From positions 1-38,529 of the IMG/VR virus record IMGVR_UViG_3300032282_004073: a stretch of 38,529 nucleotides of DNA. One strand, given 5' to 3'. Positions 29,971-38,492 of this stretch are shown piece by piece. Both the position numbers and the translations under genes were made by a program. This DNA comes from a virus. The notes under the pieces are model-generated. The model had not been told where the DNA came from. It saw only the letters and a list, made by a program, of their open reading frames with translations, and searched no databases. Each line of letters begins with the position of its first letter. Within the stretch, counting starts at the first letter, position 1.

Positions 29971-32028
29971 TTATCTGGGTACTTTTCGTTTTACGAAATA
30001 TTCACTTACTTCTCTTATTTTAGCTAAATCCTGTTTGGCTACAATTGCTCTGTCACCTATCAAAGCATAACCACAAGCCATTGCAGCATCGTAAGCGGTT
30101 GTTTTCGTCAAATCAAATTCAAGCCAATCTTTGATAAGGTCTTTAAAGTATACTCTATTAATGTTTTGATCTATATATGCTTCTGTCAACTCTGCCATGT
30201 ATTGATGAGACTTTGGAGTTGCAGCTATTCCGGGTTGCTCTCGACCATCCAGCCAAATCATAAAATCACCGTATCCCCTGTCCATGAAATAATGATAGAT
30301 TCCGATCTTGTTATTTTCATACAACATTGGGCATCCATAATACACCGCACCCTTCACCATGTCCTCGTAAAAGACTTGTACGTTATCAGGGCGTGAGCAG
30401 TACAATGCCACAAAGGCATTGTTATAGATATCGTTTTCACCCAGTGGATTGTATTTTTGCAAGATGACAGCAGCACCATTTGATCTTCTTCCATCCTCTG
30501 TAATGTTATGATCTATTGGGTCGATACCCATAATGAATTTTATACCGTTGTTTGGCTTATATGAACTTCCAACTTTTACAATTTTGTTAGATGCCCACAT
30601 TCTTTCCTCTTCTGTTGGTTTATCACCGGGAGTCTTCAATAATTTAGCAACATACCACCTACCGTTAGATGCTGGTTTCCATACTACCTTTGTATCTCTT
30701 TCCCCATTCTCCCACTCAAAGTTTCCTCGTTCTGTCAAATCATTTTTATGACCAATTGCATCTAACCTGTCGTTCAATTTCATCACATCATATAAACATC
30801 TCTCACCGTCTACCCTAAATGCCTCCTCAATTGTCATTGGCTCTTTACGAATAATAGCGGATAATTTCCTTGGCTGTGATTTGTATCTTTCTCTTTCTGC
30901 AATAATCGCAAGTTGTGCTCTTCCTCGATCCGCTCTTCCATATTTGTCAATAAATCTTGTCCTATCAGAAGGAAGAAAATATCTGTATAATCCTGATCTT
31001 GTTCTTCCATTAATTTTATCGTTTTGATCACTGTCGTACCACATTTTTTTACAAGGCTCTCCACCCTTCTCCATTTCTTCAACAGTAGTTGTAAGTAAAT
31101 GCTTCCCAATTATCTTTCCTTCGTCATCAATGTTACAGTACATCGTGACAAGAAACCTGTCATACACATCAACCTCTGTAGTTTTTCCTATCTCGTCACC
31201 AAGCATCCAATGTATCTTCTGACCATCGTATGCTATCTGTTCAGAGTTCTTCCAATCTATCATTGACTCCAGCTCTTCAGCATCAACAACATCTTCTGAT
31301 TTCTTACCCTTAACAACAGTTTGATAAAATCTAAGTTCTGAGGTAGGAGTAACACCTTTTGATGTATCGTAAATTGGTCTGAAGAATTTAGGTAATTTTT
31401 TAAATGGCTGAATAACTGCTTTACGAAACACAGCTTTTGCGTCTGCACCAGTTTTAGACTGTATGCCTCCGTTTACGCCATGTGATCTTGATGTCGGCTC
31501 ATAAAGAAATAAACCACCTCTAAATGTTTTACCCTGTCTCCTCTTAGTAATTTCTATCATGCCAAAGCACTCGTCATCTTCTATGCAATATTGCAAGAAA
31601 TAAAACCAGTCTTTGTCTGTCTCCCTATATTTGGGAAGTCCAGTATCCAAGTGCCAATAGCACATGTAGAAATAGTGCCTTCCTGTAACATATACAGGTT
31701 CTAATTCTTTTTTATCAGGATTATAATTATAGAACCAAAAACCATTCAGTCTTCTGTCCCACTCCTGAGTCTCAAATGATACAAGTGTTTTGTCGAAATA
31801 ATCTGGGTTTTTCTTCTTTTCATTTTCCTCAGCTACAACCAGTTTTTTATAATTTTCAGGATACTTGGTGGTCTCCCAATAACATTCATCCATTTTGTTA
31901 GATCGCCTGAATATTCCTCTATATTCTATTTCTCCAGATATAGAATTAATTATATATCCCGGTTCAGGTATCCAACATTTAAGTCCCTGAATATCAATCG
32001 ATGTTCCGTTCTCAATTCGTTTTAGCAC
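29971..32028 (-). CDS. terL: Terminase large subunit (packaging ATPase and nuclease)
   Basis: A 685-residue packaging motor. The ATPase has a Walker A-like TKRRQGKT at residues 161-168, Walker B IHWMLGDE at 272-279 and a coupling motif LTTTVEEM near 311. The RNase H-like nuclease has acidic residues in FIMGIDPID (Asp 503), probably Glu 571 in YENN, and Asp 646 in TAYDAAMACGYAL. It cuts concatemeric DNA and drives it through the portal encoded just downstream. The start is a GTG at 32026-32028, overlapping the previous gene by 17 bases. This is the clearest functional call in the window. Confidence 0.96.
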   Translation of the reverse strand: MLKRIENGTSIDIQGLKCWIPEPGYIINSISGEIEYRGIFRRSNKMDECYWETTKYPENYKKLVVAEENEKKKNPDYFDKTLVSFETQEWDRRLNGFWFYNYNPDKKELEPVYVTGRHYFYMCYWHLDTGLPKYRETDKDWFYFLQYCIEDDECFGMIEITKRRQGKTFRGGLFLYEPTSRSHGVNGGIQSKTGADAKAVFRKAVIQPFKKLPKFFRPIYDTSKGVTPTSELRFYQTVVKGKKSEDVVDAEELESMIDWKNSEQIAYDGQKIHWMLGDEIGKTTEVDVYDRFLVTMYCNIDDEGKIIGKHLLTTTVEEMEKGGEPCKKMWYDSDQNDKINGRTRSGLYRYFLPSDRTRFIDKYGRADRGRAQLAIIAERERYKSQPRKLSAIIRKEPMTIEEAFRVDGERCLYDVMKLNDRLDAIGHKNDLTERGNFEWENGERDTKVVWKPASNGRWYVAKLLKTPGDKPTEEERMWASNKIVKVGSSYKPNNGIKFIMGIDPIDHNITEDGRRSNGAAVILQKYNPLGENDIYNNAFVALYCSRPDNVQVFYEDMVKGAVYYGCPMLYENNKIGIYHYFMDRGYGDFMIWLDGREQPGIAATPKSHQYMAELTEAYIDQNINRVYFKDLIKDWLEFDLTKTTAYDAAMACGYALIGDRAIVAKQDLAKIREVSEYFVKRKVPR

Positions 32029-36299: not shown

Positions 36300-36787
36300 T
36301 TCTTTAAAATTTTAGAATATATAATGGGTAAATATGCGTTCTCTCTTTTCGCCTGTCCACCATTGCAAGATGCCTGAGTGGTGGATTCCTGAACTGTATA
36401 CTCAAATGCCAGATTACCACCAGTGTCCGTAACCTTCCAGTACAAAACCAAGTCCTCATGCACCAAACGAACAATAACATAAAAAGGAACCGAAAACAAG
36501 TATGACATCTTCCTGCCGTACTCTATCTTTTGATTAGTTATCAAGTATCCACCGTTCCTTTCCAAATACTCTTTAGTCAAATTAACAGATCCTGCTTTCT
36601 CACGTGTCTTTATCTCCGCAATACCAACCACCGTGTTCACACCATCAATCAAACGACCCATTATGCAGTCAACCTGATCGCCAAGAGCTGGAGTAGACAG
36701 TATCGTATAACCCATAGACTCCAATATCCTCTGAGTCTTGTACTGACCCTCCATAAAGACCTGACCCCTCTCAGTGGTACAGTCCAT
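36296..36787 (-). CDS. PD-(D/E)XK nuclease-like protein
   Basis: A 163-residue protein from ATG 36787 (a TTG one codon upstream is ignored). ALGDQVDCIMGRLIDGVNTV, then VGIAEIKTR, give the catalytic spacing D40 ... E58-x-K60 of the PD-(D/E)XK nuclease fold, after a helix LESMGYTILS. The C-terminal part (KIEYGRKMSYLFSVPFYVIVRLV) supplies strands and a helix of the core. It probably cuts DNA, perhaps in recombination or in degrading host DNA. It overlaps the HNH stop codon by one base (TGATG), so the two nucleases are co-expressed. Confidence 0.8.
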   Translation of the reverse strand: MDCTTERGQVFMEGQYKTQRILESMGYTILSTPALGDQVDCIMGRLIDGVNTVVGIAEIKTREKAGSVNLTKEYLERNGGYLITNQKIEYGRKMSYLFSVPFYVIVRLVHEDLVLYWKVTDTGGNLAFEYTVQESTTQASCNGGQAKRENAYLPIIYSKILKK

Positions 36788-37035
36788 CAACGATTCAATT
36801 TTTCGTGTACTGTTTTCAAAAAGTCTTTGTATTGTTTTTTGTCGCCATACTCAATATGACAAGACCTGCACAGAGCCATCAGATTGTCTGCCCTGTCAGC
36901 AATTTTGGAAGATCCCATTCCCCTTGACTCTATGTGGTGTATGTCTACTGCCTTAGAACCGCAGACCTCGCAAGGGATAAAATCAGATGTGTCGTAACCG
37001 AAGTGCTTGATATACAATAAAGTGTGTCGCTTCAT
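36787..37035 (-). CDS. HNH endonuclease
   Basis: An 82-residue protein with the complete HNH signature: zinc-binding C22-x2-C25, DIHHIESRG with catalytic His 33 or 34, Asn 51 in DNLMALC, and C56-x2-C59 followed by His 60. Stand-alone HNH proteins of this size are frequent close to phage packaging genes and are needed for DNA cleavage in some cos phages, but here the terminase is 5 kb away. It is the first gene of the long minus-strand block. The start codon follows a terminator-like hairpin and has no Shine-Dalgarno sequence. Confidence 0.92.
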   Translation of the reverse strand: MKRHTLLYIKHFGYDTSDFIPCEVCGSKAVDIHHIESRGMGSSKIADRADNLMALCRSCHIEYGDKKQYKDFLKTVHEKLNR

Positions 37036-37037
37036 TT

Positions 37038-37069
37038 AAAAAAAGGACCAGAGGTAGACACCCCAGTCC
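37038..37069 (-). terminator. Terminator-like hairpin in the leader of the HNH gene
   Basis: On the minus strand GGAC...GTCC ends a 25-base inverted repeat (plus-strand 37045-37069; about 9 pairs including G-U) followed by seven T and then the HNH ATG at 37035. Placed here, it could end a short transcript made from the upstream non-coding region, or act as an attenuator of the whole late block. Confidence 0.55.
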
Positions 37070-37194
37070 GTATTACACAACACATGTTAATTCTCGTAAG
37101 AAGAGCCACAAAATAGAACATAAAAATCGTATAATCAAATTATGATATCCACTTTTGTTGATAATTCTGCTAAACATAACCTATTTTAGATTAT

Positions 37195-37470
37195 TAATTT
37201 CGATAAAGACATAGTCCCCAGTGGGACTTCACCCGGAGGGTAATCAGGTACGGGTTAGAAGTCGGGTTGGTAGGATCAAATAGATCTGAGATTGTCCCCG
37301 ATAGTGTCGAAAACGAGAAGGTCATAAGTTGAAGGCTGGATTGCGCCCATAAGTAAGGGTACTGAATAAACAGTGAGTCAGCAATCTGGGTGGTGTAGGC
37401 TATGCCGAACGTACACTTCAACGAAAAATCTTCCCAAACGGTCAGGGTGATCCAAACCCTAAGGGGTATC
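37195..37470. ncRNA. Candidate structured non-coding RNA in the divergent intergenic region
   Basis: The 611-base gap 37036-37646 has no convincing gene, yet its middle is GC-richer than the AT-rich flanks and full of complementary pairs. Examples: AGTCCC (37213-37218) with GGGACT (37223-37228); ACCCG (37231-37235) with CGGGT (37251-37255); TCGGG (37262-37266) with CCCGA (37297-37301); GTTGAAG (37328-37334) with CTTCAAC (37416-37422), enclosing GATTGC (37339-37344) with GCAATC (37381-37386), a TGTAGGC/GCC/TACA hairpin (37394-37415), and AGGGT with ACCCT (37444-37460). Helices nest without conflict, giving a multi-branched fold. The strand is undecided. Flanks 37070-37194 and 37471-37646 are AT-rich and probably hold the divergent promoters, but no clear promoter consensus is seen. 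Confidence 0.55.
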
Positions 37471-37646
37471 CTTTTTTCTTTTGGGGAATACAAAATATGT
37501 ATTCAAAAGAAGTTGTTCCGTTAATACTCCCTGTTAAACAATTCTGGATCCGATGGCGATGGCTGTTCTTATCACAAAGAATGGGAAGTACATTTTATGT
37601 CTATGAATAAAAAGAAATATCCTGCCATTAACTAATTTTTAAAAGT

Positions 37647-37868
37647 ATGAGAATACATAAATGGAGCATACCCAAAATCTGGTGCAGACTATTCCACCCA
37701 AAAAATGTCGTAAGCTCCGGCAAAGTAAACTCCGTATTCTGGTGCAACTCCTGCCGAAGAATCCACCTTTACCAAGGTCCGGCAGAATCACAAACAAACG
37801 ACCTGACAGACATAATAGTCCTAACCATAACCTTTTTAACTATCCTAGCAATATCCCTATACATATGA
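37647..37868 (+). CDS. Small CxxC protein with C-terminal membrane segment
   Basis: A 73-residue protein and the first plus-strand gene. The N-terminal half is basic and aromatic (MRIHKWSIPKIWCRLFHPKN) with FWCNSC, a C33-x2-C36 pair that may bind a metal. Residues 53-73 are hydrophobic (DIIVLTITFLTILAISLYI), a likely membrane anchor at the very C-terminus. Its stop overlaps the next start as ATGA, which supports both as real genes. Unknown function; it may be an early host-interaction protein. Confidence 0.65.
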   Translation: MRIHKWSIPKIWCRLFHPKNVVSSGKVNSVFWCNSCRRIHLYQGPAESQTNDLTDIIVLTITFLTILAISLYI

Positions 37869-38050
37869 CCTACACTACCATAATAAAAGCCGTAGACCCC
37901 CTAGATGGCAAAATAAAGCTCTGGCAAGGACCAATGATATCAGCAGATAGCTGGATTCTGGCAGAAATGAAACTCAAAACAGAAGGGATGGGATACGCCA
38001 CAGTAGATGGAGAACTCGTAGAAGAACAATTTAACCCATCTATGAACTAA
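37865..38050 (+). CDS. Hypothetical 61-residue protein
   Basis: Starts at ATG 37865, inside the previous stop (ATGA). It begins MTYTTIIKAVDPLDGKIKLW and continues with ISADSWILAEMKLKTEGMGY and ATVDGELVEEQ, a mixed alpha/beta small protein of a kind often found in early phage operons. No motif recognised. The frame continues upstream to 37661, but that part is a shadow of the CxxC gene. The stop overlaps the next start as TAATG. Confidence 0.68.
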   Translation: MTYTTIIKAVDPLDGKIKLWQGPMISADSWILAEMKLKTEGMGYATVDGELVEEQFNPSMN

Positions 38051-38309: not shown

Positions 38310-38492
38310 ATGAAACAAAACCAACAAAAACACGGGAGTATAACTCAGAAGGCAAACCAAATGAATATGAGAAATGGGTGGGGTGAAAAGAATGGCGGGG
38401 TAACGCTACAGACGACCGACCAGCCGACCCAAAGGGGAATCGATTCCATGCGAGTGGGTGGGGTCGAATTCAAAGGCAAGGAATCTATTTAA
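38310..38492 (+). CDS. Doubtful 60-residue ORF in a compositionally odd stretch
   Basis: ATG 38310 to TAA 38492 encodes MKQNQQKHGSITQKANQMNM and then a Gly-rich polar tail. In the second half, codons such as GGG, CAG, ACG and CCG appear that neighbouring genes avoid. The DNA there also holds a 12-base palindrome around GGAATCGATTCC and the pair CGACCC with GGGTCG. It may instead be a structured RNA or regulatory site. The 62-base gap before it shows nothing distinctive. Confidence 0.3.
   Translation: MKQNQQKHGSITQKANQMNMRNGWGEKNGGVTLQTTDQPTQRGIDSMRVGGVEFKGKESI

What the first reader, a model, noticed from the sequence alone, without database searches (positions are those of the whole stretch)
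37195..37470. Candidate new structured phage RNA between divergent gene blocks
A roughly 280-base non-coding stretch has at least eight mutually compatible helices, including a 7-bp closing helix and several hairpins, in an otherwise AT-rich gap. I cannot match it to GOLLD, ROOL, tmRNA, RNase P RNA or a group I or II intron. Its place beside a terminator-like hairpin in front of the late block suggests regulation.
Basis: partly seen in the sequence, partly recalled or inferred. Interest (0 to 1): 0.75.

Follow-up and report, generated by a model that had tools for sequence, protein, structure and literature searches.

The report
Orphan phage RNA in conserved slot
A roughly 285-base non-coding stretch between two oppositely directed gene blocks of a phage probably encodes a structured RNA, because related phages carry structured RNAs in the same slot, one of them a family absent from Rfam and well supported by covariation; this particular copy has no known relatives, so its own structure is unproven.

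Summary
The stretch exists: a non-coding, higher-GC island between the HNH gene that opens the leftward block and small rightward ORFs. No Rfam family matches. Its helices are not better than chance (19 of 200 shuffles fold as well; z -1.3), but that test has no power here: well-supported RNAs of related phages score about the same. No homologue of the stretch was found, so the requested covariation test cannot be run on it. Following the slot into related phages changed the picture. In 10 of 10 distinct relatives a non-coding stretch of similar size stands upstream of the first late gene. Twelve RNAs (7 in those relatives, 5 found by motif) form one family (class a): 18 of 30 pairs changed on both sides, slid controls collapse, no Rfam match. 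Two more relatives share a second structured RNA; one is unplaced. Class (a) reads towards the late genes and ends with a direct repeat that changes in concert within each phage. The window's stretch is not class (a) (covariance model negative), and its composition favours the opposite, + strand. Best reading: an orphan control-region RNA with its own promoter. Function is inferred, not shown. The better-supported discovery is the class (a) family.

The parts
37195..37482 (+). candidate control-region RNA (about 285 nt), + strand favoured
   Evidence: non-coding, slot of covarying RNAs in relatives, GC skew +0.17 and purine 56% on +, as in all 15 relatives' RNAs read in their sense
37158..37202 (+). 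promoter-like: TTG (37158-37160), 21 nt, TATTTTAG (37182-37189); second -7-like TAATTTCG (37195-37202)
   Evidence: -7 consensus TAnnTTTG of flavobacterial sigma-A from PMC9723704. Consensus match only
37225..37263 (+). bulged hairpin GACTTC-ACCCG / CGGGT-TA-GAAGTC, 11 pairs with a 2-nt bulge
   Evidence: read from the sequence; formed in the minus-strand fold, partly replaced by GTCCC/GGGAC in the plus-strand fold
37273..37287 (+). small hairpin GGATC-AAATA-GATCT
   Evidence: fold
37328..37422 (+). domain closed by the 7-bp helix GTTGAAG/CTTCAAC
   Evidence: I3
37444..37482 (+). two short hairpins (AGGGT/ACCCT; AAGG/CCTT) followed by T6CT4: weak terminator-like 3' end
   Evidence: below the scanner's threshold of 5 pairs
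37038..37069 (-). intrinsic-terminator-like hairpin plus T7, directly before the HNH start codon
   Evidence: 9 pairs; 3 sites found in 1.3 kb against 0.8 expected in shuffles
36787..37035 (-). small HNH endonuclease gene, first gene of the leftward block and left anchor of the slot
   Evidence: PF01844 2.3e-8; near the head of the late block in all ten relatives
38345..38480 (+). second conserved non-coding element (GGGTGGGGTCGAA with AATCGATT), right anchor of the slot
   Evidence: same motif and direction in L002, L088, L089, L091, L092, L123

Best explanation
The window carries, between its divergent gene blocks, a gene for a structured RNA of about 285 nt that fills a slot which related phages use for control-region RNAs. 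Most likely it is made from its own promoter on the + strand, read away from the late block towards the small early ORFs. It would act in cis or as a short stable RNA in the early/late transcription control of the phage (leader-type attenuation or antitermination, comparable in place to the lambda late leader or HK022 put RNAs, from own knowledge). Shown: non-coding, syntenic slot, structured RNAs in that slot in relatives, no Rfam family. Inferred: transcription, strand, structure of this copy, and any regulatory action.
For: Slot: in 10 of 10 distinct relatives (terminase about 60%) a non-coding stretch of about 230-330 nt stands upstream of the first late gene (L087/L094 and L092/L093 counted once). 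Class (a), 12 distinct sequences: 96.9% of cells paired, 18 of 30 pairs changed on both sides, 0/500 shuffles, slid controls 31-41% paired; the covariance model finds the members tested at 112-138 bits. Class (b) L002/L086: 79 alifold pairs, 8 changed on both sides, none broken. A TAnnTTTG-type -7 box precedes the RNA in nearly all, the flavobacterial sigma-A box (PMC9723704). Window: coding rejected; Rfam negative; skew +0.167 and purine 0.563 on + lie inside the range of the 15 relatives' sense strands (0.10-0.31; 0.51-0.60), the minus strand outside it; G-U against A-C at helix ends 10:2 for +; the local skew stands out from both flanks.
Against: No homologue, hence no covariation for this sequence; folding energy not exceptional. 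The class (a) model scores at most 3.8 bits around the slot. Relatives' RNAs read towards the late genes; a + strand RNA here would lie the other way round. A terminator-like hairpin on the minus strand suggests a leftward transcript too. No transcript data. In relatives the sense strand is also the late coding strand, so skew is not an independent calibration.
Confidence: 0.5

Rival explanations
1. The RNA is on the minus strand, as in the relatives: a leader of the late operon that runs from about 37490 to the terminator at 37069-37045, read through when late genes are needed (lambda pR'/6S/tR' style, from own knowledge).
For: Relatives' RNAs read towards the late genes; terminator-like hairpin on the minus strand between the slot and HNH; weak repeat GGGGACAATCTC/GGGGACTATGTC spaced 80 nt (D3) where class (a)/(b) have their repeat; TATTTTGT (TAnnTTGY type, PMC9723704) in front.
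Against: Minus-strand composition (C>G, purine 44%) lies outside the range of all 15 relatives; G-U test 2:10 against; about one such 12-mer repeat is expected by chance (own estimate); minus fold is 9 kcal/mol weaker.
Confidence: 0.25
2. No functional RNA: an AT-rich gap with a leftover GC-richer stretch (decayed gene or random sequence) in which helices are drawn by chance.
For: z -1.3; 19 of 200 shuffles as good; no homologue; orphan neighbours.
Against: The slot is filled by structured RNAs in relatives; size, composition and skew match them; no trace of coding.
Confidence: 0.2
3. The stretch is a DNA element: replication origin or packaging site with strand-specific hairpins.
For: Lies at a strand switch, near a second conserved element with AATCGATT.
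Against: In the relatives' class (a) the pairs include 8 G-U cells but 2 A-C cells, as for RNA read in that sense, and promoter-like boxes precede them.
Confidence: 0.05

Closest known systems
Class (a) control-region RNA of related phages (found here; no Rfam match)
   Same: Same slot between the HNH gene and the early side; size; sigma-A-type -7 box in front; purine-rich sense strand
   Different: Class (a) reads towards the late genes, has the P1-P7 core and a concerted direct repeat; the window has no covariance-model hit
Lambda late leader (6S RNA of pR') and HK022 put RNAs (from own knowledge)
   Same: Non-coding RNA at the head of a phage operon, its own promoter, a terminator between it and the late genes
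   Different: No sequence or structure relation tested; the favoured strand here reads away from the late block; no Q-like or put element shown
GOLLD, ROOL, HEARO and other large phage or mobile-element RNAs in Rfam
   Same: Large non-coding RNA in a phage genome
   Different: No match at gathering, nor up to E=10

Membership tests
Class (a) control-region RNA (defined here) | Match to the covariance model R1 (core P1-P7) | tested here: not met
   best 3.8 bits in 36800-38000 with filters off; members tested score 112-138 bits
Class (a) control-region RNA (defined here) | Slot upstream of the first late gene, near HNH | tested here: met
   HNH 36787-37035 on one side, element at 38345-38480 on the other
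Class (a) control-region RNA (defined here) | Direct repeat of 6-14 nt about 65-81 nt apart that changes in concert within a phage | tested here: inconclusive
   only a 10/12 repeat (D3), about one expected by chance; members have 6-14 nt exact
Class (a) control-region RNA (defined here) | Sense strand towards the late genes | tested here: inconclusive
   composition and G-U pairing favour the opposite strand; not decided
Any Rfam 15 family (GOLLD, ROOL, tmRNA, RNase P, group I/II intron, HEARO) | Score at or above the gathering threshold | tested here: not met
   0 matches in the window; only chance matches up to E=10; ARAGORN negative
Lambda-type late leader or put-type antiterminator RNA | Makes RNA polymerase read through downstream terminators | not testable with these tools
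   needs a reporter assay
Lambda-type late leader or put-type antiterminator RNA | Promoter, non-coding leader, terminator, then late genes on one strand | tested here: inconclusive
   minus strand has the terminator 37069-37045 but only a weak promoter match; plus strand has the better promoter match

The most novel reading that the evidence does not exclude
A control region of a whole phage group whose slot is always occupied by a structured RNA, but by sequence-unrelated RNAs that can even lie in opposite directions, so that the slot and not the RNA family is conserved; the window holds a further, so far unique class, and class (a) controls late expression through two concerted copies of one short motif.
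Probability: 0.3. Interest if true: 0.75.

Novelty: new variant of a known kind. Interest (0 to 1): 0.5.

Why it matters
Structured RNAs that sit at the switch between early and late genes are known in few phages (own knowledge). A covarying family absent from Rfam at that switch in Bacteroidota phages, with a repeat that changes in concert within each phage, gives a testable handle on late-gene control in a group where it is hardly studied. For the window itself the gain is smaller: a plausible but unproven orphan occupant of that slot.

Tried and rejected
Homology of the stretch itself: blastn in phages and plasmids, nhmmer and blastn on all loci then held, and one 16-mer scan of IMG/VR whose 31 hits are chance. 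Coding on the minus strand (99 aa): rejected. Neighbouring rightward proteins as bait: no relatives. More class (b) members: only the same two contigs. GTDB genomes: one provirus-like relative with a 38% terminase (L165, Chitinophagaceae) without class (a). Group I intron: AAAGACATAGTCCCC resembles the S element, but no partner strand lies upstream and Rfam is negative. Class (a) repeat as take-off and landing sites for translational bypassing, or as splice borders: spacing is not a multiple of 3 in most members, and no upstream ORF in L091, read by hand; dropped. Pairing of the repeat with a complement within 1.5 kb: none, except one 8-mer in L004. Folding z-scores as evidence either way: dropped after calibration. 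sigma-70-type promoter scan: as many hits as in shuffles, so not used alone.

Full report
What the window is. The window is a whole IMG/VR record of 38,529 bases. Its terminase (29971-32028 -), capsid-like and GroES-like proteins point to a group of Bacteroidota phages; the best cultured terminase matches are Flavobacterium elemo phages at about 29% identity, and a provirus-like relative sits in a Chitinophagaceae genome. The genes from 3 to 37035 are on the minus strand; short ORFs on the plus strand start at about 37497.

Check of the observation. The stretch is there and is non-coding. A minus-strand ORF of 99 codons covers it exactly, but it scores worse in codon usage than four of its five other frames and has no relative in IMG/VR. 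The folding energy is within the shuffled range: z -1.30 on plus and -1.26 on minus. I calibrated that test on twelve RNAs with strong covariation from related phages: their z-scores run from +0.5 to -2.7. The energy test therefore says nothing either way. Rfam is silent at the gathering threshold and has only chance matches up to E=10.

The slot in relatives. Terminase searches gave relatives at about 60% identity. Ten distinct ones reach far enough upstream: L002, L004, L086, L087 (same as L094 here), L088, L089, L091, L092 (same as L093), L095 and L103. In all ten the HNH gene stands at or near the head of the late block, and upstream of the first late gene lies a non-coding stretch of higher GC; in L091, L095 and L103 another gene stands between HNH and that stretch. 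Five further contigs (L118, L120, L123, L125, L129) came from a motif scan, which gives 15 stretches in all. A second conserved element on the early side (GGGTGGGGGTCAAA, AATCGATT) lies in the same direction in the window and in six relatives, so the interval is collinear.

Class (a). Twelve distinct sequences share one architecture. In the core of 137 columns 96.9% of cells pair, 18 of 30 pairs have changes on both sides, none of 500 shuffles reaches the observed values, and sliding the partner by one column drops pairing to 35-40%. The counts come from a sequence-only MAFFT alignment; cells are not independent events. Pairs include 8 G-U cells against 2 A-C cells in the sense direction, and the RNAalifold energy is better in that direction (-33.0 against -26.6). 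A TAnnTTTG-type box precedes the RNA start in nearly all members, the -7 consensus of flavobacterial sigma-A (PMC9723704). The 3' part holds a direct repeat (R1, R2), 6-14 nt exact, about 65-81 nt apart, whose sequence differs between phages but agrees within a phage; 10 of 14 sequences tested have P of 0.01 or less against shuffled second segments, while L092, L120, L002 and L086 do not. R2 ends at or shortly before the start of the first late gene, whichever gene that is (read by eye). No Rfam family was reported in the ten class (a) or (b) loci scanned apart from two tRNAs.

Class (b) and L089. L002 and L086 share a longer RNA (79 alifold pairs, 8 changed on both sides, none broken). With two sequences this is modest evidence. 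Its 3' part resembles class (a): CGGAG-CGACG-CUCA followed by a repeat around a GCGAAG hairpin. I read this by eye and did not test it. L089 has only the slot, a promoter-like box and the short string GGTGACGGAG in common with class (a).

The window against these. The class (a) model finds nothing in the window. Sequence search finds nothing either. So the window is not a member of class (a). It shares the slot, size and composition. On the plus strand its GC skew (+0.167) and purine share (0.563) lie within the range of the 15 relatives' sense strands, on the minus strand outside it. Helix ends of Watson-Crick-only folds extend by G-U on plus ten times and on minus twice; the same count separates the strands in class (b) (7:1, 4:0) but hardly in class (a) (52:40), so it is weak evidence. 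The plus strand also has the better promoter match (TTG-21-TATTTTAG) and a weak U-tract end. Against this, the relatives read the other way, and the only terminator-like site with a full T-run near by is on the minus strand just before HNH. I put about two to one on the plus strand.

Mechanism. What is shown is a slot for structured RNAs at the early/late switch. How they act is inference. For class (a), place and anatomy (own promoter-like box, about 230 nt, ends at the first late gene, two concerted motif copies) fit a leader that controls the late operon: an antiterminating or attenuating RNA, or a two-site target of a phage RNA-binding regulator that co-evolves with the motif. For the window the same kind of role is the best guess, with the added doubt about the strand.

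What was chosen after looking. The strand test, the D3 repeat and the resemblance of the bulged hairpin at 37225-37263 to the class (a) hairpin between R1 and R2 were all noticed after comparison with class (a), on both strands; none was predicted beforehand.

Noticed in passing
L004, L087, L088, L091, L092, L095, L103, L118, L120, L123, L125, L129: Structured RNA family (class a) at the head of the late operon, absent from Rfam, strong covariation, with a direct repeat that changes in concert within each phage.
   Followed up: yes
L002:3540-3900, L086:5265-5640: Second structured RNA (class b) in the same slot; its 3' part resembles class (a).
   Followed up: partly
window 38345-38480; L002, L088, L089, L091, L092, L123: Second conserved non-coding element (GGGGTAAT ... 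GGGTGGGGGTCAAA ... AATCGATT) on the early side, same direction in all.
   Followed up: partly
L092:10001-13051: Terminase interrupted in frame by roughly 330 residues after RRQGK, with a CFAKDTPIRMYDG start and a VVHN end: looks like an intein; read by eye from the translation.
   Followed up: partly
L002 about 2080-2030, minus strand: CTGATGAGTCCCAGTAGGACGAAAC, resembling a hammerhead ribozyme core, at the end of a long GC-rich non-coding stretch; Rfam did not report it at gathering.
   Followed up: no
L091 about 5520-5180, L087 about 3870-3770: tRNA-like elements (AGAACAG ... GGTTCGA ... CTGTTCT), some much longer than a tRNA; ARAGORN calls only the one in L087 a tRNA.
   Followed up: no
L087, L091, L095 upstream of the RNA: Divergent promoter-like pair with a shared box (TATTTTAGAGAGTT or TAATAGAGAG) in front of TAnnTTYG, perhaps the site of a phage regulator.
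   Followed up: partly
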